From: a virus
Reading direction: 5' to 3' (one strand)
Length of the DNA: 26,274 nt
Virus record (IMG/VR): IMGVR_UViG_3300048033_000114
Span: 1 to 26,274 of that record
Part shown: positions 2,963 through 26,274 of the stretch, in pieces
Layout of the letters: every line of letters begins with the position of its first letter
How positions within the stretch are numbered: the first letter of the stretch is position 1
Position numbers and translations under genes: made by a program
The notes under the pieces: model-generated
What the model saw: the letters and a program-made list of their open reading frames with translations, nothing else
Told to the model about the DNA's origin: nothing
Databases searched by the model: none

Positions 2963-5057
2963 AGTGTTAGGTGTAGACCTAGAAACTACCGTAGATGACT
3001 TAGATGGTAAAATAGATAACAGCCCATTCAACCCTAAAAACAAATGTGTCTCTGCACACTTTGCATGGCTAGGTGGTGAGGTAAGCCACCTTGTATTTAA
3101 CCATAACGAGAAGGATGTACCTGACAGTACAGAGCTACTTCGCAAAGCAATTGCTGAAGCGGATGTGATCGTTGCACACAACGCTAAGTTTGATGTCCTT
3201 TGGCTACTTGAAATGGGGTTTGAGATTGATTGTGACGTGTATTGCACAATGATCGGAGAATACATTCTATCTAAGGGACAACGACAAGAGTTAGGTCTCA
3301 AGGCTACAGCCATACGCCGTGACGTTACTCGCAAGAAGTCCGACCTAGTGGATGATCTGTTTAAGAGTGGTACTGGTTTTGAAGCCATGCCCTTAGATAC
3401 TGTAATTGAGTATGCTGAAGCTGATGTCATTGCTTGCCTTGAAATATACGAGCAGCAGAAGGAAGAGTTTGCTCTAGAGTATAACGAAAGCCTAATTAGC
3501 GTATCTACCCTGATGAACGAAATGCTAATGTTCCTTGTGGAGATTGAGCGCAACGGCATTAAAGTAGATCTAGATGTGCTGTCAAAAATCAAGGAGCAGT
3601 TTCTAGAAGAACAGCAGACCTTAAAGAAGCGTCTTAGCGAAATTCTCGAAGATATCATGGGAGATACCCCAATCAACCTAAACTCTGGTGCAGATATGTC
3701 TAAGGCAGTGTATAGCCGCAAGGTTATTAACCGCCACCTACACCAGCAAGTATGGAATATTGGTGTTGGTCCTACTGGTAAGCCACTGTATCCGCCTCGT
3801 ATGAAACCTGCTGAGTTTGCACGTTCTGTTAGATCCACTACAGAGGTGGTTAACCGTACACATGCTATATGCTGCAATACCTGTGATGGGCGTGGTAAGG
3901 TACGCAAGATAAAGAAGGATGGTGTACCCTACAAAAACCTATCTAAGTGTGAAAGCTGTGACGGTTTAGGTGCTTTCTTTCAGGACACAGGTGTAGTGGC
4001 AGGTCTTAGACTTAACCCAGAGACACCTGCAGACGCATCTATCAATGGCTTTAAGACGGACAAGGTTACGTTGAAGCGTTTGATCAAGCAGGCACGTAGA
4101 AAGGGCAACCTCATAGCAGAGGAGTTCCTTACTAAGAGTAGCCGACTAAATGCAGTAAACACGTACCTAGATAGTTTCGTTAAAGGTATCGAAACATGGA
4201 CACGTTCTGATGGTATTCTACACAGTAACTTTAATCAGTGCATCACTGCTACTGGGCGTCTATCTTCGTCCAACCCTAACTTCCAAAACCAACCAAAGCG
4301 AGGCTTCCCTGTCCGTAAGGCTGCAGTATCTAGGTTTGAAAACGGAGAAATTTTGGAGGCGGATTATGCAGCGCTTGAGTGGCGTGTTGCGGCGGAACTA
4401 AGCCGTGATCCACAGGCTATTGAGGACATTGTATCAGGTAAGGATGCCCATAAGCAGACTGCGTGTATTATTAATCAATGTGAGCCTGAAGATGTTACCA
4501 AGGATATGAGGCAAGCGGCCAAGGCCTATTCGTTCGCACCCCTTTTTGGGGGTCAAGGAAATGGAGAAGCTGAACACGTCCGTAAGTACTTCTCTGAGTT
4601 CTTTGTGATATATAGCGGCCTTGGTGAGTGGCATAAGCGACTTATGGACGGTGTGTTAAAGAATGGAATTGTCCAAACACCGTCAGGTCGTCAATACTTC
4701 TGGCCCAATGCCCGTAGAATGCGCAACGGACGGATATCTAATGCTACTCAGGTGGTTAACTACCCCGTACAGGGCTTCAGTACAGGTTGTATAGTTCCCC
4801 TTGCCTGTATCCGAGCATATAGACTGTTCAAGAAGGCTAATCTGCGCTCTAAGCTAATCCTGACTGTACACGACTCTATCGTGATAGATTGTGCGCCTGG
4901 AGAACTTCCACCAATCAAAAAGATACTTGTTGAGGCTATGCAGGATGTGACTGAAGAGATCAAAAGTCGCTGGGGATATGAGTTCTGTATTCCCCTACCT
5001 ATTGAGATCAGCACAGGTAAAAATTGGCTGGACCAAGACGAAATTCCACTTGAATAA
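2952..5057 (+). CDS. polA: Family A DNA polymerase with 3'-5' exonuclease and a DnaJ-like zinc-ribbon insertion
   Basis: A 701-residue replicative polymerase. Exonuclease motifs: VDLET (D9, E11), AHNAKFD (N77, D81) and YAEAD (Y154, D158). Polymerase motif A is DYAALEWR (D471, E476), motif B RQAAKAYSFAPLFGG (R520, K524) and motif C TVHDS (H640, D641). Between the thumb segment INLNSG (241-246) and TDKVTLKRL (369-377) lies an insertion with two CxxCxGxG motifs (C308/C311 and C333/C336), as in the DnaJ central domain. T7 polymerase carries its thioredoxin-binding loop at about this place. I recall a partial DnaJ domain being reported in the HMO-2011 polymerase. Motif B has Phe at the E. coli Phe762 position (F528) and Phe at the usually invariant Tyr766 position (F532). 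Confidence 0.92.
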   Translation: MLSKVLGVDLETTVDDLDGKIDNSPFNPKNKCVSAHFAWLGGEVSHLVFNHNEKDVPDSTELLRKAIAEADVIVAHNAKFDVLWLLEMGFEIDCDVYCTMIGEYILSKGQRQELGLKATAIRRDVTRKKSDLVDDLFKSGTGFEAMPLDTVIEYAEADVIACLEIYEQQKEEFALEYNESLISVSTLMNEMLMFLVEIERNGIKVDLDVLSKIKEQFLEEQQTLKKRLSEILEDIMGDTPINLNSGADMSKAVYSRKVINRHLHQQVWNIGVGPTGKPLYPPRMKPAEFARSVRSTTEVVNRTHAICCNTCDGRGKVRKIKKDGVPYKNLSKCESCDGLGAFFQDTGVVAGLRLNPETPADASINGFKTDKVTLKRLIKQARRKGNLIAEEFLTKSSRLNAVNTYLDSFVKGIETWTRSDGILHSNFNQCITATGRLSSSNPNFQNQPKRGFPVRKAAVSRFENGEILEADYAALEWRVAAELSRDPQAIEDIVSGKDAHKQTACIINQCEPEDVTKDMRQAAKAYSFAPLFGGQGNGEAEHVRKYFSEFFVIYSGLGEWHKRLMDGVLKNGIVQTPSGRQYFWPNARRMRNGRISNATQVVNYPVQGFSTGCIVPLACIRAYRLFKKANLRSKLILTVHDSIVIDCAPGELPPIKKILVEAMQDVTEEIKSRWGYEFCIPLPIEISTGKNWLDQDEIPLE

Positions 5058-5058
5058 A

Positions 5059-5095
5059 GTGGCGCAACATGCCACACTATAATTCCCGTAACTAA
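5059..5095 (+). promoter_or_regulatory. Candidate internal promoter with palindromic operator before the SSB gene
   Basis: Immediately after the polA stop, GTGGC-N7-GCCAC (5059-5075) forms a 5-bp palindrome or hairpin. A perfect -10 box TATAAT (5078-5083) and then TAACTAA (5089-5095) follow. The only -35 candidate with 17-bp spacing is TAAAGT, which is weak, so an activator may be needed. A strong ribosome site AAAAGGA precedes the next ATG. Extra expression of a ssDNA-binding protein would be expected. Confidence 0.45.
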
Positions 5096-5107
5096 AAGGA
5101 TCATAAC

Positions 5108-5941
5108 ATGAGCGATCTACAATTAATCGAAGGTAAAAACATTGACGCACTAGCAGGAATGCTAGGTGCAGCAGTCAGTGGGGGCGGTGATACAAGCCGC
5201 ATGCCTGAATTAAAAATTAACAGCCAAGTAGAAGATGATGCAGGAAACTTACTTCCTCGTGGAGAGTTCTACATCAAAGGTATGGAGCAGCAGGTATACT
5301 CCTCTACTGTTAAATTTCGTCCACTTGCACACCACTATCAGTGGTTGCATTACGACCCTGAAGCTAACAAGCTGGTAAACAAAACCCGACTTGTTGCAAG
5401 TTTCCGTGAGGAAGCTCGTGATATCAAAGGTGGTATCAAGTGTGGGAAACCTTCCTACAAAGCAATGCAAGACCTGCCACAGGAAGAACGTGATAAATAC
5501 AAAGATATCACTCTTTTCCGACAGGTACGTGGACTTGTGTCGTATACAGGAAAGACTGTAAGCGGCGAGGAAGTTAAAATAAAAGACCAGCCTGTAATCT
5601 TGATGTTGAAAGGCTCAAACTATGCAGCTTTTGAAGACGATTACATCAAAACACTATCTCGTGGTCAGAACCTATTCGACTACTATGTAGAACTAACTAC
5701 AGAAAAACATAAGAACGGGTCTGTGACGTGGTACACTTTTGTCTACGGTAAAAAGGATGGTCCTCTATCTGTAGATCAGACTACTTACGATACTATGGTA
5801 CACATTGCCGAAATTATCTCGAAAGAGAATAAGAAGGTGGATGATGCCTACTTCAATGCCGCTCGTGAAGATGCGCTAGATGCTACAGCATTTGATGCTT
5901 TAGGTGATAGCCTTGACGACGACTTTGATGACGTAGCATGA
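5108..5941 (+). CDS. Probable single-stranded DNA-binding protein (T7 gp2.5-like role)
   Basis: A 277-residue protein placed right after the polymerase. It has a beta-rich centre (about residues 50-230) with many aromatic and basic residues and a strongly acidic C-terminal tail (GDSLDDDFDDVA). Phage and bacterial SSBs end in such acidic, Phe-containing tails, which contact polymerase and helicase. Size, tail and location fit a gp2.5-type or recombination-associated ssDNA-binding protein; the OB-fold itself cannot be proved by eye. It has its own ribosome site and a likely promoter at 5059. It overlaps the nuclease gene by ATGA, tying it to DNA processing. Confidence 0.6.
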   Translation: MSDLQLIEGKNIDALAGMLGAAVSGGGDTSRMPELKINSQVEDDAGNLLPRGEFYIKGMEQQVYSSTVKFRPLAHHYQWLHYDPEANKLVNKTRLVASFREEARDIKGGIKCGKPSYKAMQDLPQEERDKYKDITLFRQVRGLVSYTGKTVSGEEVKIKDQPVILMLKGSNYAAFEDDYIKTLSRGQNLFDYYVELTTEKHKNGSVTWYTFVYGKKDGPLSVDQTTYDTMVHIAEIISKENKKVDDAYFNAAREDALDATAFDALGDSLDDDFDDVA

Positions 5942-6804
5942 GCTTACAGGATCAAATACATGAGGTCTTAGACCGTCTGTCTAACAATGAAAGCCAGGAT
6001 CTGGACATTGAAGACAGTTGGATCGAAGAGGCAGGCGAGGCGTTTAAGGATGCGCTTCGTCGCCAATTCACTCGGAGAGAGGATGATTTCCGTCTCCGTA
6101 TGTCGAATATTGGCAGGCCTCTTTGCCAGCTTCAGATGGCTAAACAAGGTGCTAAACAAGAGCGCAAAGACTATAACTTCATTATGCGAATGCTGCACGG
6201 TGATGCGATTGAATGTATCATGGATGTGGTATTAAAGATTGCCAAAGCCAACATTACTGGTGGCAAATCTAAGGTAGAGTTTGACCTAGGTGGTAATATT
6301 ATCAAGGGTGAAGATGACGTTGAGATCGACAACAAGGTCTACGACATTAAATCAGCTTCGCCATTTGCCTTTGAGCATAAATGGAAGAAAGGTCTTACTG
6401 CCTTAAAAGAGAACGATGACTTTGGCTACGTTGGTCAATTGATTGGTTATTCTGATGGGCAGGATCTGGAAACAGGCGGATGGATTGTTGTTTGCAAAAG
6501 CTCAGGACAGGTAGTTGTAATGGATGCCACTTTCTCTGATGAAGAGAAATCAGGCATAAAAGCTGAATTAGAAATGAAGGCCAATGCAATCAAAGAAGAT
6601 TGGGCTTTTAAAAGATGCTTTGAACCCGTGGACGACTTCTTTAATCGGAAGTTCACAGGATCCAAAAAGCTACCTATGTCTTGTAACTTCTGTGACTATA
6701 AGCAGTCATGTTGGCCTAATGCTAAATTGCTCCCACAGCCCATGTCTAAGGCCAAGGAACCTAGAAAGAACTGGTATGTATCGTACCAAGGAAAGGATCT
6801 TTAG
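5938..6804 (+). CDS. PD-(D/E)XK exonuclease with Cas4/AddB-type Fe-S cysteines
   Basis: A 288-residue nuclease, probably resecting or degrading DNA for recombination or nucleotide recycling. It shows RMLHGDAIE (H87), GEDDVEID, the catalytic strand YDIKSAS (D136-x-K138) and the QLIGY motif (Q167, Y171) of RecB/Cas4-type nucleases. One Cys at 63 plus C249-x2-C252-x5-C258 matches the one-plus-three cysteine layout that binds a 4Fe-4S cluster in Cas4, AddB and Dna2. No CRISPR array or other cas gene is present, so a phage replication/recombination role fits. ATGA overlap with the SSB gene and 1-nt overlap with the next gene show a coupled unit. Confidence 0.75.
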   Translation: MSLQDQIHEVLDRLSNNESQDLDIEDSWIEEAGEAFKDALRRQFTRREDDFRLRMSNIGRPLCQLQMAKQGAKQERKDYNFIMRMLHGDAIECIMDVVLKIAKANITGGKSKVEFDLGGNIIKGEDDVEIDNKVYDIKSASPFAFEHKWKKGLTALKENDDFGYVGQLIGYSDGQDLETGGWIVVCKSSGQVVVMDATFSDEEKSGIKAELEMKANAIKEDWAFKRCFEPVDDFFNRKFTGSKKLPMSCNFCDYKQSCWPNAKLLPQPMSKAKEPRKNWYVSYQGKDL

Positions 6805-7154
6805 TGGCGATAAAAACGTCCTCTGCGAAAGCCAAGGGCAGGCGTCATCAGCAGTGGGTTAGAGATCAAATACTAGAACTGTTTCCCAAATTGGAACCAG
6901 ATGACGTTCGATCAACTAGTATGGGCGCAGGTGGAGAGGACGTACAACTCTCCCCTGCGGCTAGGAAACTCTTCCCCTACTCTGTGGAGTGTAAGGCATT
7001 TAAATCCTTCGCAATCTACAAGGTGATGGAGCAGGCGAAAGACAACTGCCCAAAGGGTGCTGAACCCCTATCCATAATAAAAGCAGACAGGCAGAAACCG
7101 CTGGCTGTCGTAGATGCAGAATTTTTCTTCAAACTTGTAGGGAAACAGAAATGA
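6804..7154 (+). CDS. Small PD-(D/E)XK-like nuclease, Holliday-junction-resolvase-like
   Basis: A 116-residue protein starting at GTG 6804, overlapping the preceding TAG by one base. A basic N-terminus (KAKGRRHQQWVRDQILE) precedes DVRSTSMGAGGEDVQLS and YSVECKAFKSFAIYKV. GEDV followed by SVECK resembles the D...ExK centre of small PD-(D/E)XK endonucleases (D44 or D51, E67-x-K69 by rough count). Phage resolvases of about this size process branched DNA before packaging, the T7 gp3 role, and the position after SSB and exonuclease matches that order. The specific activity is inference. ATGA overlap with the next gene. Confidence 0.55.
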   Translation: MAIKTSSAKAKGRRHQQWVRDQILELFPKLEPDDVRSTSMGAGGEDVQLSPAARKLFPYSVECKAFKSFAIYKVMEQAKDNCPKGAEPLSIIKADRQKPLAVVDAEFFFKLVGKQK

Positions 7155-18560: not shown

Positions 18561-20911
18561 TGTAGCTTCCCATAATTAACCATGAGATACCCGTCAGTAC
18601 CTTCTATAACGGCCTCTGGATGTGTCTTCTGAACTTCTTGAGCAAGAACACCAAATCCTGGAGTATCTGCCAGCCCCATTTCAAGAGCGGTCTCATTCCA
18701 ATCCCATGTGTAGACGTTAATACCATTAGGTGTGGTACTATGCGCTTGGATATTATCTTTTAGACGTACATCTGATTTAGTAATAAGCGCAGCACCAATT
18801 GAGCCAATCGCTCCCCATAAACCAGAGCTACCGCTACCACTGTTAGCCTGTGCCATGATTTCTGTTTTTAGAATTTCCATGTCACGGGTGGATTCGTTCT
18901 CAGTAGCAGTAAAGATATAGTCGAGCAGACTATCTACTCGGTCCCACATACGGTTCAATCCTTCTTGAGAAAGATCAAAGCTATTCTTCACGTCTAAGGC
19001 ATATGCATCATATAGCATTTCAGAGTTAGTAGTTGCAACCTCTTGCCGCCATGTAGCATTGAATTTATCGATGTTGTATTGCATTTCTGCATAGAACTTC
19101 TGACGACCATTTTCCATGTTTGCGTTAAACTCAGATGCATCGTTAATTTCACCAATATTGAACTTAGCCATGCTATTGGCCATTTCAGTGTTATGCATCT
19201 GTACGGTAGACGTTAGATTATCGTAGAACTTCTGGAAGTCATTCGTCTGCTCTGCACCAAACAAACGTGCTGCGTTTATGGCAGCTTGGTCGTTAAATAA
19301 GGCGTCTACCATTGCCTGAGTATTAATGATCTCGGCCTGTTGCGCATTGTCTAGGTTAGTCATATCCATCTCAAGGAACGCTTTAGCATTCTGGACGGCT
19401 GCTGCCTGACGTGCATCTAGGTTTGCTACCTCAAACTGTGCAAGGACGTTAGCCTTGTTGATAATTGCTTGTTGGCGGTTATCTAAGTTCTTAGTTGTAA
19501 TGGTCTGGAAGAAAGTAGCTTCTTTCTCCGCAATACCTAAAGTAGCTTCCATAATAGCGGTAGACATAGCTGCTGTAGCCGCACTACCTGATACACCTGA
19601 AAAGGCCATTGTACGGCCTACACTACGAGAAAGGGATTGTGCCCAAGGTGGGATTACAGGGTTTCCGTTACTGTCCTTAAATTCCTCGGAAATGATTTTC
19701 ATCTGACCAAGAATTGTAGACTTAGAATCCGTGTAGTTTCCCTCACCTAACTTATCGGCAAGTAACTTACCTGCCGCAGTAGATGTGTCGATAATAGTAG
19801 AGATATCTAGTGTGGCGTAGTCGTTTAGAGCTTCACCAGTGACGTTGGTAGTACCATCAGCATTTACACCTGTTGCAGCACCATTGATATCAATCTCAAT
19901 ATCGGAAGCATTAACTAGGTTCTCATCACGGATCTCACCTGAAACGGCATCTGCTGTAGCCTCTGGATTACCTGATATAAGATCTGCCGTAGTACTTGCA
20001 TCGTAGGTAGTAGCGGTTCCTGCAACGACATCATCTACAGTAGCAATAGTGTCCACAGTACCTGCAGTATATGCAGGGCTATCACCAAGGGCATAGTCTG
20101 GGCTACCTGAATCCATCCCAGTGCCTTCAGCATCAGGGTCGAGAAGAACCCCATTATTACTAACAAGGTCGGAAAGTGTCATACCACGGTCTGATAGATA
20201 GCCTACAGGGTCAGAAACCATGTTACTGATTTCTTGGTCAGAAGAGACTACACCTGCTGTCATAGCCATTTCTAGAATGGATTCAGCACTTAGCGGATTA
20301 TCTCCTGCTGCCTCTTCAGTCTGGTTAGCCTGCTGTAGTTGCTCTAACTGATCCGCAGCGTCATTATCTCCTGACGCACGTAACTGCTCGATACGGGCAT
20401 AATCCGTACCGTCCATTGGGTTACCACTATCATCAAGCATGACATTTCCATCGGCATCCTGTTTGATGTCGTAAGGAAGGCCTAAGAAGTTGTAGGAGTA
20501 GCTAGTACCATCTTTGCGGGTATATACCGCTCGGTTACCGTAATTTTCAGATTTGTCTTCTTTAGTATCAACCCCTGTTAGATAAAGGAAACCTTTACCA
20601 AAAAGAGTGTTGTTAAGAACTGCAGAGACCTTGCCTGCAGTACCCTTGATCTCAGTAGGTGTGGTATTTTTATTAGTATCACTAGCACTTGTAGTTTCGC
20701 TGTTCCCACCACCAGAATACAAAGCATTACCGTTGCCATCGTCACCATAGCCACCAGAAGAATTTACTGGAACTGTAGAGCCTTTATTATCACCTGAATC
20801 ATACTCCAGAGTGCCTCCAACGTAGGAAGCCCCGTCATTAGGAGTAAACGTGTTTGCAACGCTTTCAGAGAAGCTGTTACCGCCGCCAAATGTATCTGAC
20901 CAAAAGCCCAT
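18557..20911 (-). CDS. Structural protein with C-terminal S74-type intramolecular chaperone domain
   Basis: A 784-residue protein. The N-terminal part is Gly/Ser/Asp-rich beta-type sequence (about 1-360). A helical region (about 460-560) holds three ~23-residue repeats opening with NLDNRQQA, NLDARQAA and NLDNAQQA. The last 72 residues start SDVRLKDN and contain YTWDWN, GVLAQEV and HPEAV, the hallmarks of the S74 self-cleaving chaperone of phage fibres; the Ser-Lys dyad (S713, K718) is present. Such domains assist trimerisation and cut themselves off before Ser. This suggests a trimeric fibre or spike. The domain is shorter than usual (often about 100 or more residues). Start overlaps the o-spanin stop by 1 nt. 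Confidence 0.75.
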   Translation of the reverse strand: MGFWSDTFGGGNSFSESVANTFTPNDGASYVGGTLEYDSGDNKGSTVPVNSSGGYGDDGNGNALYSGGGNSETTSASDTNKNTTPTEIKGTAGKVSAVLNNTLFGKGFLYLTGVDTKEDKSENYGNRAVYTRKDGTSYSYNFLGLPYDIKQDADGNVMLDDSGNPMDGTDYARIEQLRASGDNDAADQLEQLQQANQTEEAAGDNPLSAESILEMAMTAGVVSSDQEISNMVSDPVGYLSDRGMTLSDLVSNNGVLLDPDAEGTGMDSGSPDYALGDSPAYTAGTVDTIATVDDVVAGTATTYDASTTADLISGNPEATADAVSGEIRDENLVNASDIEIDINGAATGVNADGTTNVTGEALNDYATLDISTIIDTSTAAGKLLADKLGEGNYTDSKSTILGQMKIISEEFKDSNGNPVIPPWAQSLSRSVGRTMAFSGVSGSAATAAMSTAIMEATLGIAEKEATFFQTITTKNLDNRQQAIINKANVLAQFEVANLDARQAAAVQNAKAFLEMDMTNLDNAQQAEIINTQAMVDALFNDQAAINAARLFGAEQTNDFQKFYDNLTSTVQMHNTEMANSMAKFNIGEINDASEFNANMENGRQKFYAEMQYNIDKFNATWRQEVATTNSEMLYDAYALDVKNSFDLSQEGLNRMWDRVDSLLDYIFTATENESTRDMEILKTEIMAQANSGSGSSGLWGAIGSIGAALITKSDVRLKDNIQAHSTTPNGINVYTWDWNETALEMGLADTPGFGVLAQEVQKTHPEAVIEGTDGYLMVNYGKLQ

Positions 20912-21159
20912 TATAGTTTTCCTCTTTCTTCTTCACAGCGGCGAATTCTGTCACGCAGCTTTGCATAATCTGTAATTGCCGTAGGAATTGCATATTGATC
21001 TTGTGCCAGAGCATCTAAGTCATCTGCTAGATCTTCATTGAATTCTTGGGAGTATGAAACGATAGGTGGGCAGTAGACTTCTACTTGCTTTCTATAGACC
21101 GTCTCGGCGCAGCCTGTCAGTGATATCACTGCGGCTAGTAGGATTAAAATCTTCCGCAT
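20911..21159 (-). CDS. Outer-membrane spanin lipoprotein (o-spanin, Rz1-like)
   Basis: An 82-residue protein from ATG 21159. MRKILILLAAVISLTGC is a lipoprotein signal with lipobox LTGC, so the mature form begins at Cys17. The rest includes VYCPPIVSYSQEFNEDLADDL and a C-terminal DYAKLRDRIRRCEEE, a pattern I associate with o-spanins of alphaproteobacterial phages. The frame stays open back to 21249, but that part lacks a signal sequence. The gene begins inside the i-spanin gene (68-nt overlap in another frame), as Rz/Rz1 pairs often do. It would disrupt the outer membrane in the last lysis step. Confidence 0.75.
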   Translation of the reverse strand: MRKILILLAAVISLTGCAETVYRKQVEVYCPPIVSYSQEFNEDLADDLDALAQDQYAIPTAITDYAKLRDRIRRCEEERGKL

Positions 21160-21334
21160 CTTCTGCCATCGCTTTGTAAAAGTCAGAGGCCTTTTTCTCA
21201 GCCTGTAAGTCGTCGGTAAGTACTGTATGCTGCGCAATCTTTTTCCCATCCTTACGTCCTAGGATATAAAGAAAAGGAAAAAGAAGACTAGCAGCAATCA
21301 GAAGGTAGGTTTTAAGTTTACTGAAAATAAACAT
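21092..21334 (-). CDS. Inner-membrane spanin (i-spanin, Rz-like)
   Basis: An 80-residue protein with an N-terminal membrane anchor (about 7-26, YLLIAASLLFPFLYILGR) and a charged, probably coiled-coil periplasmic part (LQAEKKASDFYKAMAEDAEDF). Location between endolysin (1-nt TGATG overlap) and the lipoprotein gene identifies it as the i-spanin. It is shorter than lambda Rz (about 150 residues), but compact spanins exist. Confidence 0.68.
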   Translation of the reverse strand: MFIFSKLKTYLLIAASLLFPFLYILGRKDGKKIAQHTVLTDDLQAEKKASDFYKAMAEDAEDFNPTSRSDITDRLRRDGL

Positions 21335-22065
21335 CAGTGAACGCCTTCTTTATGATCCTTAAATCGGGCATATGCTGCCAAGGCAATGCCTCCTACGGCA
21401 CATAGCAAGAAGATGGTTTTCATACTTTCACTGTAGGGAACAAGCGCCTCAATCTGTGGTGCAATCTCGCCCAACGCAGTAGCTGCACCTGCAATCCCTG
21501 CACCCGCCATTGTTTTACTTTTAGCTAAGGGCTTTTGTGCAGAGGCTGTTACTTTCTGTGGAGCAATAGCACCGCCATCATCTGACGGTAGTTTTGCATC
21601 TGCAGAGAACACAGCAGCTTCTGCTGCCCGTCTGCGAGTTAGACCTTTGAGTGCAGTCAGCTTTCCGTCTACACGAGCTTTGTTCCATCGCATGAATTGT
21701 TCAGGACATTCATCGTATAGACCTTTGTTTAACTTCTTTAGAAGCGTAGAACTACGGAAGTTCCCGCCTCCAAGATTAAACACAAAGGATACCAAGGCAT
21801 CGTATTGACCTTGTGTTAGAGGAACCTGAACGTACTGTTTAACGTAATGCTCGTGTTCCGTGATATCCTTGATAAGAAGATCTTCAGCTTCTTGCTTAGT
21901 GATTTTTAAACCAGAACGGATACCTTTGACTGAGCCATATCCAATTGTCCATTTTCCTGCAGGACACCGATATGATGTGACCGTACCGTCTGGTTGTACT
22001 TTGTGCAGGCCTTCGAACCGTTTAATAAGTTCTTTACCTTGGTTTGAGATTGATTGTGGGTGCAT
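21334..22065 (-). CDS. GH24 endolysin (T4-lysozyme/P21 type) with C-terminal membrane segment
   Basis: A 243-residue muramidase. KRFEG gives the catalytic Glu18; YRCPAGKWTIGYGS carries the Cys34 and Thr40 positions that replace or match the Asp/Thr of the E-D/C-T triad; QYDALVSFVFNLG and LTRRRAAEA are further GH24 motifs. After about residue 155 comes an Ala/Gly/Lys linker and a hydrophobic segment (about 217-234, TIFLLCAVGGIALAAYA) with a short charged tail. This C-terminal anchor is absent from T4 lysozyme. No separate holin is seen next to it. It starts the endolysin/spanin cassette. Confidence 0.88.
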   Translation of the reverse strand: MHPQSISNQGKELIKRFEGLHKVQPDGTVTSYRCPAGKWTIGYGSVKGIRSGLKITKQEAEDLLIKDITEHEHYVKQYVQVPLTQGQYDALVSFVFNLGGGNFRSSTLLKKLNKGLYDECPEQFMRWNKARVDGKLTALKGLTRRRAAEAAVFSADAKLPSDDGGAIAPQKVTASAQKPLAKSKTMAGAGIAGAATALGEIAPQIEALVPYSESMKTIFLLCAVGGIALAAYARFKDHKEGVH

Positions 22066-22068
22066 AGG

Positions 22069-24024
22069 TTACCTTGTTTGAGTAAACGGAGACATGAAGC
22101 CCCCTGTTGGTACAGATCCCTGAGACGCTGGGCTTAAATTACCCGTGCTTGCGTTAGCTCCTGTTTGCCGTTGTAGGCTCCCCAAATCGCTTAGAGAACG
22201 ATTGATGTTGATGACTTTGTTGCCAATTTCATTTCCTGTTACATCAAAGGATTTGAGAAGTAGGTTACCGTTAGCATCTACTGCACGGCTGATAGTATTG
22301 CCCTGCTCATCAATGGAGTTACGGATAAGTTCACCGTTTTGTCCAAATGCTGTAGATAGCTGCTTGAAGTTCTGGCGCATGCCCATATCCAAGTCACCTT
22401 GAGTAGCAGCGATACCCGCTAGATCTTTTGCTTGACTGATGGAGTTTGCATCCATGTTCTGGAAGCCACCCTCAAGTTTAGTCTGTAGATTACCTAGTTG
22501 ACCACTAAAGTCCGCAGACATGTTACCTTGATCAGTAGCCATGTTACCTAACTGAGTTGCAGTAGCGTCTTGATTAGCTTTCATGCTAGACATTAGGCCT
22601 TCGTTACCCGCCTGTAGCTGGCTCCCAATACTGGACATGATACCATCGGTGTTTTCTTTTAAAGTAGGAGCAATCCAATCCCTCAGCAGTTTGTTACCTG
22701 ACAAACTGGTATCCGCAATATTGGCATTGGTTGCGGCTAGACGGGATACTGTATCTGCCTGATAATTCTCTGCGTCAGTAAGCATCTGGTTAACATCCGT
22801 ACTAACCTGACCTACTTGCTGACCCGCCGCATCAAATTTAGTCTCTAGCATGACACCTTGGTCATCCATAGAACGAGTGATCGTATTGCCTTGCTCATCA
22901 ATGGAGTTCTTAATTAGCTCTCCGTTGTCTCCGAAGGCAGACGACAGGGATTCATATTGAGCCTTAGTATTGGCATCGATATTATCGCCTGTAGTTTGTA
23001 GCAAGTTCTTAACATTGCCCAAGCGAGTAGTCATGTTCTCTGCTTGCTGGTCTGCTGCAAGCGAGTTAGCACTGAAGCCACCTTCTACCGTTGTGCCTAG
23101 GGCTGCTAGGTCATTACCTGTAGCAGTAGCCACATCACCCAACTGTCCTGATAGGTTAGCCTGACCTTCTGCAGCCGCTTGTGCAAATGTACCCAAGTCA
23201 TCTCGCATAGCGTCAGAGGAGTTTGCGATCATTGTCTGCGTATCAGCACGGGTCTGGTTAGCCAAGGTAACGTCATCAGAATATCGATCTACATAGTTAT
23301 CAAATGTAGTCTTGTATTCATCCATGCCCTGCTGCAAGTTTCCTTGGTTTTCTAGCTGCTCGGTAGCATACGCATCTGCAGTATCTTGCATCGTATCTAG
23401 AGTAGTACCAAGATTACCTTGACCTTCTAGGACGTTAGCTTGCGTTGAAGTTAGCTCTGAGGAAGCATTACCAAAACCTTCAGCCAAAGCATCGCCTGTC
23501 TCACTAAACCCTGTATTAAGATTGCTGTTAGCAGCCTCAAATTGTGCTGTTCTATCCGCCTGTGCGTCAGCAAACCCTTGAGCCTGGTCAGTAAAACCCT
23601 GATCTACAGCACCTTGGATATTGGCTTGTCCTGCATCGACGCTATCAAAACGCCCACCCATAGTATCAAAGCCACCAGAAACATCACTAGATAGATTGCT
23701 CAAAGCGGTAGCATTACCGCTAATGCCTGTATTGTTAGCATTAACGCCTGTATTCACAGTATCAAACTGAGCATTCATACCTTGATTGTAGGTATCCATA
23801 AGATCAGAGAGATTAGTGAAGCCTGAAGTAAGGTTGGAACCAATACCAGCAACACTGGAGTCAATACCATCAAAACGGGTATCAAACTGATCATATCGAG
23901 CCGTAGCATCTGTACGAGCCTCTCCGATTTGATCACTAATACCTACTTGGTTATCTGCCAAGTCCTGGAACTGGTCGTCAGATAGACCACCATCTACTAC
24001 TGTTTCACCGCTGCCGCCGCCCAT
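22069..24024 (-). CDS. Long repetitive fibre-like structural protein
   Basis: A 651-residue protein, Gln/Asn/Asp/Thr/Gly-rich and Lys-poor, built of many short imperfect repeats (patterns such as GFDTMGGRFDSVD, QANIQGAVDQGF, NLGTTLDTMQ) with heptad-like spacing, suggesting a long parallel coiled-coil trimer. A ~50-residue module occurs twice (LSSAFGDNGELIKNSIDEQG and LSTAFGQNGELIRNSIDEQG, coded near 22810-22960 and 22220-22370). The N-terminus (MGGGSGETVVDGG) is Gly-rich. Likely a tail fibre shaft or fibre-linked virion protein. It starts 1 nt after the acyltransferase gene, making it a candidate partner or substrate (inference). Confidence 0.55.
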   Translation of the reverse strand: MGGGSGETVVDGGLSDDQFQDLADNQVGISDQIGEARTDATARYDQFDTRFDGIDSSVAGIGSNLTSGFTNLSDLMDTYNQGMNAQFDTVNTGVNANNTGISGNATALSNLSSDVSGGFDTMGGRFDSVDAGQANIQGAVDQGFTDQAQGFADAQADRTAQFEAANSNLNTGFSETGDALAEGFGNASSELTSTQANVLEGQGNLGTTLDTMQDTADAYATEQLENQGNLQQGMDEYKTTFDNYVDRYSDDVTLANQTRADTQTMIANSSDAMRDDLGTFAQAAAEGQANLSGQLGDVATATGNDLAALGTTVEGGFSANSLAADQQAENMTTRLGNVKNLLQTTGDNIDANTKAQYESLSSAFGDNGELIKNSIDEQGNTITRSMDDQGVMLETKFDAAGQQVGQVSTDVNQMLTDAENYQADTVSRLAATNANIADTSLSGNKLLRDWIAPTLKENTDGIMSSIGSQLQAGNEGLMSSMKANQDATATQLGNMATDQGNMSADFSGQLGNLQTKLEGGFQNMDANSISQAKDLAGIAATQGDLDMGMRQNFKQLSTAFGQNGELIRNSIDEQGNTISRAVDANGNLLLKSFDVTGNEIGNKVININRSLSDLGSLQRQTGANASTGNLSPASQGSVPTGGFMSPFTQTR

Positions 24025-24025
24025 A

Positions 24026-24448
24026 TTAGAACTCCTTAGTGTGTATTTTGTCTGGGGATTTAAACCGCCGCCAATTGGCAGGAACTCGTCGTCCTAATTC
24101 GGTTTGAGAATATTTCATCATGCCTCGCATGACTTTTGTTGTGTGACCAAACGGTGCTATGAAATCTATGCCCCAAAGCTGATATTGATCGTCTATAATG
24201 TCAGGTCGTGACCAGACCTTTTCATCTGGCATCCACCTCTCTGACAGGAAGTCTTCAGCCTCTTCCGTAGTAAACCAAGCCCAAGAAACAAACCCAATGG
24301 GTTGATCTCCGTCATAAAACAGTCGGGCTTTTTTATAGATTAAAGGGAAAAGGCAGTAGTTGTTAAACTCTACCAGAGTGTATAGCCTATGATCGTCGGA
24401 TTGATTGAACAGATATAGGCAATCTAGAACAGTGTTTCTGCTCTTCAT
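24026..24448 (-). CDS. Toxin-activating lysine acyltransferase (HlyC/RTX-acyltransferase family)
   Basis: A 140-residue protein that matches HlyC by eye through most of its length. The pattern LYLFNQSDDHRLYTL aligns with the HlyC region holding catalytic His23 (here H20); PIGFVSWAWF aligns with PVAYCSWANL; LWGIDFIAPFG aligns with WFIDWIAPFG, whose Asp92 is catalytic (here D95). HlyC moves a fatty acyl group from acyl-ACP to internal lysines of a pro-toxin. No RTX toxin (no GGxGxD repeats) is in the window, so the substrate is unknown. Neighbours are fibre genes, suggesting acylation of a virion protein or a host protein. HlyC is about 170 residues; this one lacks the C-terminal extension. AGGTGAG precedes ATG. 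Confidence 0.82.
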   Translation of the reverse strand: MKSRNTVLDCLYLFNQSDDHRLYTLVEFNNYCLFPLIYKKARLFYDGDQPIGFVSWAWFTTEEAEDFLSERWMPDEKVWSRPDIIDDQYQLWGIDFIAPFGHTTKVMRGMMKYSQTELGRRVPANWRRFKSPDKIHTKEF

Positions 24449-25045: not shown

Positions 25046-26206
25046 TTATAGCTCCGCATCAAATGAAATACCAGAGGTAGCGCCACCATCATATAATGAA
25101 CAAGCCTGGCCAACTACACCTCCGCTGAACCCAGATATATAAAGGCTTCCTTGTGTTTTACTTGAACGATTAGTGCTAATGGAAACACTATCATCCGTTG
25201 CAGTAGCAGGGCTGTAGAACTTTGTAGCATTGGTACCAAGAAGAGCAGCAGTTGGAACTGCTCTCATTGTTGTAGGGAAAACTACACCAGATAATGCTGC
25301 TATTCCTGTATTTTCCACAGTGCCTACCATGTAATTTGTCGTGTTGCCGTCGCTAGTCAGGACGAAGTAGTACCTTTGTGCAGCGGCCAGTTCTTCACCA
25401 TAGGATCGGTGTTCAAAAGGCGTGGCGACTTTGCCTACTTCAAGTTGGACGCCTGTGATCTGCCAGTAGTCACCAACTGTTGTTGAGTTGCTGCAACCCA
25501 CCGCACGGTTAGCTGCAACTTGAGCAGCCCACTCGCTCTGAGTTGTCCCAGAAGTGTAGTTACTACCAGCGATCATCCACCAAAACAATGTCACGTTGCC
25601 AGTAACGGCGTCTACTGTATCTGGTGGAATTACTAAGGACTTCTTTTCCCATACGTCTGCACTGTTGATGGTATAGGGCATAATAACAGTTTTGATTGGT
25701 CCGCCCTTGGTCATATCTACGGTGTAGCTGCCTGTGCGGTTTGACTTTATCCAAAAGGAAACGACCAGAGAAGTAGCTTTAGCAGTCCCAAAAGCCAAAT
25801 TCCTCATGTTTGTAAACTCAATGCGCTGCTCAAACGGGATTATGTAACCAGCCGTTGAGAGTGTTGCAGTAGTTTGAACCGTCGCTTTTAGAGAGAAAGG
25901 GAAACCTTCTTCTGTGGGACCACTTGCCTGTTCAATATCAAGATCAAACGTAGCGGCGTCATGCTCTTGATTCCATCTGTCAAGACAGTATTGCTGATCT
26001 GAGACAGTGGTAAAACTCGTCCCACGCTGCGCCACCTGCATGGCACCATTGATAATAACATTCCTGCGCCCAGCACCAATCAGATTAAACTGTTCCTGTG
26101 GTGTCTCAGCACGAAGCATAGCCTCGCCAGCTAGACCCGTAGGCTTGCGGAGGTCAGCCAACTCCTCCCGTACATTAATGGCTGGTTTTTCGATACGAAC
26201 TGTCAT
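25046..26206 (-). CDS. Tail fibre / receptor-binding protein with carbohydrate-binding-module-like domain
   Basis: A 386-residue protein. ATG 26206 (MTVRIEKPAINVREEL) follows AGGAG and is preferred over TTG 26224. After a helix (about 15-45), RNVIINGAMQVAQRGTSFT, YCLDRWNQ, the WQITGVQLEVGKVATPFEHR motif and SYGEELAAAQRYYF form the pattern common to the ends of many marine and podophage tail fibres, where the beta-sandwich between the DRW and GVQLEVG motifs resembles a CBM. The final ~90 residues are beta-rich and probably bind the host surface. First complete gene of the leftward block in the window. Confidence 0.75.
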   Translation of the reverse strand: MTVRIEKPAINVREELADLRKPTGLAGEAMLRAETPQEQFNLIGAGRRNVIINGAMQVAQRGTSFTTVSDQQYCLDRWNQEHDAATFDLDIEQASGPTEEGFPFSLKATVQTTATLSTAGYIIPFEQRIEFTNMRNLAFGTAKATSLVVSFWIKSNRTGSYTVDMTKGGPIKTVIMPYTINSADVWEKKSLVIPPDTVDAVTGNVTLFWWMIAGSNYTSGTTQSEWAAQVAANRAVGCSNSTTVGDYWQITGVQLEVGKVATPFEHRSYGEELAAAQRYYFVLTSDGNTTNYMVGTVENTGIAALSGVVFPTTMRAVPTAALLGTNATKFYSPATATDDSVSISTNRSSKTQGSLYISGFSGGVVGQACSLYDGGATSGISFDAEL

Positions 26207-26210
26207 TCTA

Positions 26211-26274
26211 TCACTCCTCGACAATCATGCCGTTAGAGGCGCTGATAGCAGCACCGACTGCGTTAGTTGTGTTG
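26211..26274 (-). CDS. C-terminal end of an upstream structural gene, partial
   Basis: An open frame enters from the right edge and ends with TGA (26211-26213). Only NTTNAVGAAISASNGMIVEE is visible. It lies 4 nt before the tail fibre start, so it is in the same operon. The sequence is too short to identify; position suggests a tail or fibre protein. Confidence 0.5.
   Translation of the reverse strand, partial: NTTNAVGAAISASNGMIVEE

What the first reader, a model, noticed from the sequence alone, without database searches (positions are those of the whole stretch)
24026..24448. Phage-encoded HlyC-type lysine acyltransferase without a toxin
The 140-residue product keeps both catalytic residues of HlyC (His near position 20 and Asp95 in the IDFIAPFG motif). 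HlyC-family enzymes use acyl-ACP to fatty-acylate lysines of RTX toxins (established knowledge). There is no RTX protein here. The gene sits between a fibre-associated gene and a long fibre-like protein. This raises the possibility that the phage lipidates a virion protein, for example to help penetrate the outer membrane, or modifies a host protein. That would be a new use for this enzyme family. I cannot tell whether homologues in other marine phages have been annotated.
Basis: partly seen in the sequence, partly recalled or inferred. Interest (0 to 1): 0.85.

Follow-up and report, generated by a model that had tools for sequence, protein, structure and literature searches.

The report
Phage HlyC-type enzyme beside delivery protein
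A marine phage carries a relative of the bacterial enzyme that fatty-acylates pore-forming toxins, and in about 190 related phage sequences the gene directly before a tail or DNA-delivery protein codes for it, which suggests (but does not prove) that these phages lipid-tag a part of their own injection machinery.

Summary
Confirmed: minus-strand ORF 24448-24026 (140 aa) is a PF02794 (HlyC) protein, 52.8 bits against a cut-off of 25. Its AlphaFold model matches ApxC (TM 0.77), and it keeps His20 and Asp95. It is not an orphan observation: isolate phage CRP-235 (HMO-2011 type) has an 81% identical gene, and six SAR11 phages have distant ones, already annotated as (putative) RTX/toxin-activating (lysine-)acyltransferases. 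No phage paper describing a role turned up in the library searched.

New here: in several lineages with unrelated partner proteins (about 190 loci), the next gene is a tail-hub, ejection or coiled-coil protein beginning Met-Gly-(Gly/Ala/Ser/Arg), with four Met-Ser-Gly exceptions. The window's partner family has no conserved lysine. In one tail-hub family every HlyC+ member has this N-terminus and no HlyC-minus member does; the latter mostly read MG(F/I/L/W). The slot holds GNAT-like or NlpC/DUF6950-type proteins in HlyC-less phages.

Best explanation: a dedicated acyltransferase for the delivery protein encoded next door, paired as HlyC-HlyA and CdiC-CdiA are, the acceptor more likely the N-terminal amine than a lysine. 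Family shown; substrate, acceptor and purpose inferred. One record keeps an MGS partner without HlyC.

The parts
24026..24448 (-). HlyC-family (toxin-activating-acyltransferase-like) protein, 140 aa
   Evidence: PF02794 E=4.8e-14; AlphaFold2/Foldseek to ApxC TM 0.77; 81% identical to CRP-235 gp30
24389..24391 (-). codon of His20, predicted catalytic His (CAT)
   Evidence: sequence; aligned with ApxC His24; His in 13/13 HMO-type relatives, Tyr in 24/24 pelagiphage types
24164..24166 (-). codon of Asp95, predicted catalytic Asp (GAT) in IDFIAPFG
   Evidence: sequence; aligned with ApxC Asp; Asp 28 / Glu 9 of 37
22069..24024 (-). putative partner/substrate: 651-aa coiled-coil-like virion-region protein starting MGGGSGET
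   Evidence: starts 1 nt after the HlyC stop; the same family follows HlyC in 27/27 relatives whose downstream end is present; no conserved Lys
24004..24024 (-). Met-Gly-Gly-Gly N-terminus of the partner, proposed acceptor region
   Evidence: M[G/S]GG conserved in 26 homologues; residue 3 Gly kept through synonymous codons GGC 12 / GGT 12
24032..24037 (-). AAGGAG ribosome-binding-site-like sequence of the partner inside the last HlyC codons (K-E-F-stop)
   Evidence: read directly; same context in relatives; suggests translational coupling (inference)
21334..22065 (-). lysozyme-type endolysin, next gene in the cassette (context)
   Evidence: PF00959 E=2.7e-42
25046..26224 (-). tail-fibre-like protein upstream (context)
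   Evidence: phrog_4492 tail fiber E=2.4e-50

Best explanation
The gene encodes an HlyC-family protein acyltransferase that has been recruited by several marine phage lineages to acylate, during virion assembly, the DNA-delivery or tail-tip protein encoded immediately downstream (here the 651-aa protein). By analogy with HlyC and CdiC it would take a fatty acyl group from host acyl-ACP and use Asp95 (with His20) to transfer it to an amine. Because the window's partner family has no conserved lysine but partners in every late-gene lineage start Met-Gly-small (or Met-Ser-Gly-Gly), the acceptor is more likely the N-terminal amine exposed after Met removal than a lysine side chain. The acyl chain would help the ejected or tip protein engage a host membrane. 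Shown: family, fold, catalytic residues, linkage, N-terminal pattern. Inferred: donor, substrate, acceptor, purpose.
For: Family and fold. Immediate adjacency and order enzyme-then-partner, as in hlyC-hlyA (established knowledge); in class IV CDI loci cdiC likewise lies before cdiA (PMC8510554). Seen in HMO-2011 type (27 loci), HTVC112P type (84), HTVC026P type (42), HTVC115P type (10) and a further 22 hub loci. Partners are unrelated in sequence yet all start MG[G/A/S/R], four MSG exceptions; elsewhere in two complete phages such a start is absent (0 of 113 other CDS; any MG start 5 of 115 in all). Upstream neighbours in the HMO type vary, the downstream one does not. In one tail-hub family HlyC+ members have the motif 114/114 and HlyC-minus 0/48 (one further row is a start-codon artefact); the state changes 5 times on the tree and nearly all independent pairings agree, none the other way. 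Later check on new loci: 5/5 HlyC genes in late position, about 50% identical to the HTVC103P enzyme, precede MGS or MGG partners. Related isolates CRP-235 and CRP-738 differ in both slot enzyme and partner N-terminus. The window partner lacks conserved Lys.
Against: No biochemical evidence; the donor and any acyl chain are unknown. Gly2 is mostly retained in HlyC-minus hub relatives (MGF, MGI, MGL, MGW), so only residue 3 tracks HlyC, and that class was defined after seeing the data; supported independent pairs are 3 (p=0.25), 5 on all branches. Record G002 has an MGSVFKRV partner and no HlyC at the syntenic site, although close relative L292 has one there. In HTVC103P-like phages the gene lies in the early region next to a small coiled-coil protein. 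In the 026P and 115P loci the start of the partner overlaps HlyC codons by 8-17 nt, which may by itself constrain Gly2; not so in the HMO, 112P and late 103P-like types. All 24 sampled pelagiphage-type enzymes lack the catalytic His.
Confidence: 0.5

Rival explanations
1. HlyC-like lysine acylation in the classical sense: the enzyme modifies an internal lysine of the neighbouring protein or of another virion protein (tail fibre, ejection protein).
For: All characterised members acylate lysines (HlyA K564/K690, CdiA K1467; PMC8510554). Partners of the HTVC115P type are lysine-rich near the N-terminus with GK motifs.
Against: No lysine column reaches 60% in the window's partner family and most members have no GK; the HTVC112P hub sequence has no lysine in its first 40 residues.
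Confidence: 0.2
2. The enzyme acts on a host protein or host envelope component during infection (host takeover or superinfection exclusion); adjacency to the delivery gene reflects operon layout only.
For: HTVC103P/104P and ten related contigs carry it in the early region beside ssDNA-binding protein and primase genes.
Against: In the other lineages it is fixed directly in front of a virion-region protein, the order is kept across unrelated partners, and the partner N-terminus co-varies with the enzyme.
Confidence: 0.17
3. It has lost acyltransferase activity and serves as an assembly chaperone for the downstream protein (a small acyltransferase-fold protein).
For: Catalytic His is Tyr in the pelagiphage types and Asp is Glu in the HTVC112P type; a slot before tail-tip proteins often holds accessory assembly factors (general knowledge).
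Against: The window enzyme and all sampled HMO-type relatives keep His, most keep Asp; His-to-Ala variants of CdiC and ApxC retain activity (PMC8510554). In other phages the slot is filled by other likely enzymes (GNAT, NlpC/DUF6950-type), suggesting catalysis.
Confidence: 0.13

Closest known systems
RTX toxin-activating acyltransferases (HlyC, CyaC, ApxC; PF02794)
   Same: Fold, His/Asp dyad, gene directly upstream of the presumed substrate gene
   Different: Phage-borne, no RTX protein, shorter (140 aa), partner without conserved lysine; the pelagiphage branches lack the His
CdiC of class IV contact-dependent inhibition systems (PMC8510554)
   Same: HlyC-family enzyme with a non-RTX, envelope-engaging adjacent substrate; the lipid is proposed to anchor it in the target outer membrane; substrates of loci without cdiC lose the acceptor, comparable to the N-terminal shift seen here
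   Different: CdiC acylates Lys1467 of a secreted adhesin; here a virion-region protein and probably an N-terminal site
Annotated phage homologues: Roseobacter phage CRP-235 gp30; Pelagibacter phages HTVC026P, 103P, 104P, 111P, 112P, 115P
   Same: Same family; CRP-235 gp30 is 81% identical and in the same cassette
   Different: Annotation only; no function was found described in the papers searched
Eukaryotic-type N-myristoylation (N-myristoyltransferase, GNAT fold)
   Same: Proposed chemistry and Met-Gly-small N-terminus resemble it (analogy only, from general knowledge)
   Different: No homology tested; donor there is acyl-CoA, here presumed acyl-ACP

Membership tests
PF02794 HlyC / toxin-activating acyltransferases | Profile match above the curated cut-off | tested here: met
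   52.8 bits against 25
PF02794 HlyC / toxin-activating acyltransferases | ApxC fold | tested here: met
   AlphaFold2 pLDDT 87.6; Foldseek TM 0.77, E 1.5e-7
PF02794 HlyC / toxin-activating acyltransferases | Catalytic His/Asp dyad | tested here: met
   H20 and D95 aligned with ApxC; met in the window protein, His not kept in pelagiphage branches
RTX toxin operon (hlyC-hlyA type) | Adjacent RTX protoxin | tested here: not met
   Nine largest late ORFs without RTX Pfam hit; no RTX annotation in the 50 kb read of CRP-235
PF02794 HlyC / toxin-activating acyltransferases | Fatty acyl transfer from acyl-ACP to lysine | not testable with these tools
   Needs biochemistry; the neighbour has no conserved lysine
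CdiC (class IV CDI) | Between cdiB and cdiA in a CDI locus | tested here: not met
   Neighbours are phage tail-fibre, lysozyme and ejection-region genes
N-myristoyltransferase-like N-terminal acyltransferase | Acylates N-terminal Gly | not testable with these tools
   Only the co-variation of the partner N-terminus speaks for it

The most novel reading that the evidence does not exclude
Marine phages use an HlyC-family enzyme as an N-terminal (glycine) fatty-acyltransferase that lipidates a tail-tip or ejected virion protein; a bacterial-virus counterpart of N-myristoylation, with other acyltransferase-like or NlpC-type enzymes occupying the same slot in relatives.
Probability: 0.3. Interest if true: 0.88.

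Novelty: new variant of a known kind. Interest (0 to 1): 0.62.

Why it matters
If true, lipidation of a virion or ejected protein would be a new step in how tailed phages cross the Gram-negative envelope, in phages of very abundant marine bacteria (SAR11, roseobacters). It would extend HlyC enzymes beyond lysines and beyond toxins, and it gives a sharp, cheap test (the mass of one protein). Cultured carriers exist (CRP-235, HTVC026P, HTVC112P).

Tried and rejected
Alignment A1 was too diverse for a collection scan. The AlphaFold model of the alternative slot protein (CRP-212 type) was too poor to use (pLDDT 45.8), and hhalign found no relation between it and the HlyC alignment, so homology is not claimed; its GNAT-like nature rests on deposited annotations ('putative acyltransferase', CRP-738 and one more) and sub-threshold hits. 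'Gly2 depends on HlyC' was rejected: HlyC-minus hub proteins mostly keep Gly2 and HTVC202P has MGIG with no HlyC anywhere in its genome. The prediction that L281/L282 carry HlyC elsewhere failed within the available sequence. No relative of the window gene was confirmed in bacterial genomes. Literature searches found no phage study of such an enzyme; the paper describing CRP-235 does not mention it in its main text. A promoter-like match upstream is no better than shuffles.

Full report
What was checked. The ORF is on the minus strand, 24448 to 24026, 140 aa. It belongs to PF02794 HlyC (52.8 bits, cut-off 25); in PHROGs it falls in an unnamed family (phrog_20210), and no NCBIfam model matches. 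An AlphaFold2 model built on 37 viral homologues is good (pLDDT 87.6, pTM 0.83). Foldseek ranks three chains of ApxC (4whn) first and then GNAT enzymes at non-significant E; the first viral match is a phage protein itself named HlyC hemolysin acyltransferase. His20 and Asp95 align with the ApxC dyad.

What is already known. Isolate phage CRP-235 (described with the HMO-2011-type phages, PMC9038755) has an 81% identical gene annotated 'putative toxin-activating lysine-acyltransferase'; HTVC112P and five other SAR11 phages have distant relatives with similar names. A non-RTX substrate for this family is published: CdiC is reported to add 3-hydroxydecanoate to Lys1467 of CdiA, strengthening outer-membrane binding (PMC8510554). 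The searched library held no phage study of such an enzyme.

The partner. In the window the next gene starts one nucleotide after the stop, with its AAGGAG sequence inside the last HlyC codons. The same arrangement recurs in 27/27 HMO-2011-type relatives whose downstream end is present. HTVC112P-type (84 loci) and HTVC026P-type (42) siphophages carry the enzyme between the tail-protein-L gene and the tail-hub (J-like) gene, and HTVC115P-type podophages (10) before a basic amphipathic protein. The partners of the three groups are unrelated in sequence, yet all begin Met-Gly followed by Gly, Ala, Ser or Arg; four HMO-type members read Met-Ser-Gly-Gly. In CRP-235 and HTVC112P together 5 of 115 CDS start with MG, and only the two partners have the small third residue. 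In the HMO type the gene upstream of HlyC varies.

Which amine? In 26 window-type partners no lysine column reaches 60% occupancy, several have only 4 to 6 lysines, and most lack the Gly-Lys context of HlyA, whereas M[G/S]GG is conserved. Residue 3 keeps Gly through synonymous codons (HMO GGC 12/GGT 12; HTVC112P GGT 64/GGA 8). If the neighbour is the substrate, the N-terminal amine is the better candidate. This is inference.

Natural experiments. (1) A scan for relatives of the HTVC202P hub gave 22 HlyC+ loci, all MGG or MGS, and 58 hub loci without a detected HlyC (a few with little upstream sequence), reading MGF, MGI, MGL, MGW, MRF or MYN. On a tree of 163 distinct hub proteins the motif is present in 114/114 HlyC+ and 0/48 HlyC-minus; one further HlyC-minus row, L197, is a start-codon artefact (annotated start MKN). 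HlyC state changes five times; on supported branches there are three independent pairs, agreeing in 2.9 of 3 on average and never going the other way, so the sign test cannot reach significance. (2) In HMO-2011-type phages CRP-738, CRP-3 and CRP-212 the slot holds a different ~150-aa protein, one annotated 'putative acyltransferase', and the partner carries an extra N-terminal peptide ending ...SG[LM]I.F before the glycine run. (3) In HlyC-less phages with J-like hubs the slot holds DUF6950/NlpC-like proteins or GNAT-type acetyltransferases. (4) Loci fetched afterwards with the HTVC103P enzyme gave five late-region copies, all before MGS or MGG partners (5/5), and ten early-region copies before a small coiled-coil protein starting mostly MS[DEN]K or MTEK.

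Facts that do not fit neatly. Gly2 persists without HlyC in most hub relatives and in HTVC202P, whose genome has no HlyC. Contig G002 has the HTVC103P-type partner (MGSVFKRV) but no HlyC at the syntenic place, while L292, with the same neighbouring genes, has it: recent loss or polymorphism. In HTVC026P-type and HTVC115P-type loci the reading frames overlap by 8-17 nt, which may constrain codon 2; this cannot explain the HMO, HTVC112P and late HTVC103P-like loci, where coding overlap is absent or a single base. All pelagiphage-type enzymes sampled have Tyr for His20, and the HTVC112P type has Glu for Asp95; His-to-Ala variants of CdiC and ApxC retain activity (PMC8510554), so activity remains plausible.

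Mechanism, with status. HlyC-family protein: shown. Fold like ApxC: predicted with good confidence. Acyl donor acyl-ACP: from family knowledge. Substrate is the next gene's product: supported by linkage and co-variation. Acceptor is the N-terminus: suggested by the lack of conserved lysines and the N-terminal pattern. Purpose, membrane engagement during DNA delivery: inferred from CdiC, from the hydrophobic or amphipathic N-termini of pelagiphage partners, and from the bulky hydrophobic residue that appears at position 3 when HlyC is missing.

Verdict. The enzyme is a new variant of a known kind; the N-terminal acylation reading is the interesting, unproven part.

Noticed in passing
L170, L171, L172, L199, L183-L192 (CRP-738, CRP-3, CRP-212, CRP-7 and contigs): A different ~150-aa protein (motif GRKGW; annotated 'putative acyltransferase' in CRP-738) fills the slot, and its downstream partner starts with a conserved peptide (roughly ..MRYVH.R.SGLI.FGGGG), also on an otherwise different protein in CRP-7.
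   Followed up: partly
L178, L180, L181, L182, L197, L198: In HlyC-less siphophages the gene before the J-like hub encodes a DUF6950/NlpC-P60-like protein (tested by Pfam for the first four, annotated as DUF6950 in L197); whether it too modifies the hub is unknown.
   Followed up: no
L175 (HTVC033P) 5003-7117: At about the equivalent position HTVC033P has two annotated 2OG-Fe(II) oxygenases and a 'putative ferrochelatase', i.e. another set of possible modifying enzymes next to an ejection-region protein.
   Followed up: no
window 20911-21334, minus strand: Overlapping ORFs of 80 aa (N-terminal membrane segment) and 112 aa (contains a lipoprotein-like signal LLAAVISLTGCAE) just after the endolysin look like an embedded spanin pair (Rz/Rz1 type).
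   Followed up: no
L285 (G002:38000-42093) against L292 and L112: HlyC present or absent between the same early-region flanking genes in closely related HTVC103P-like phages.
   Followed up: partly
L017, L018, L020-L022, L029 and window 22069-24024: The partner protein varies in length from 491 to 1057 aa between relatives, with conserved ends and a variable middle.
   Followed up: no
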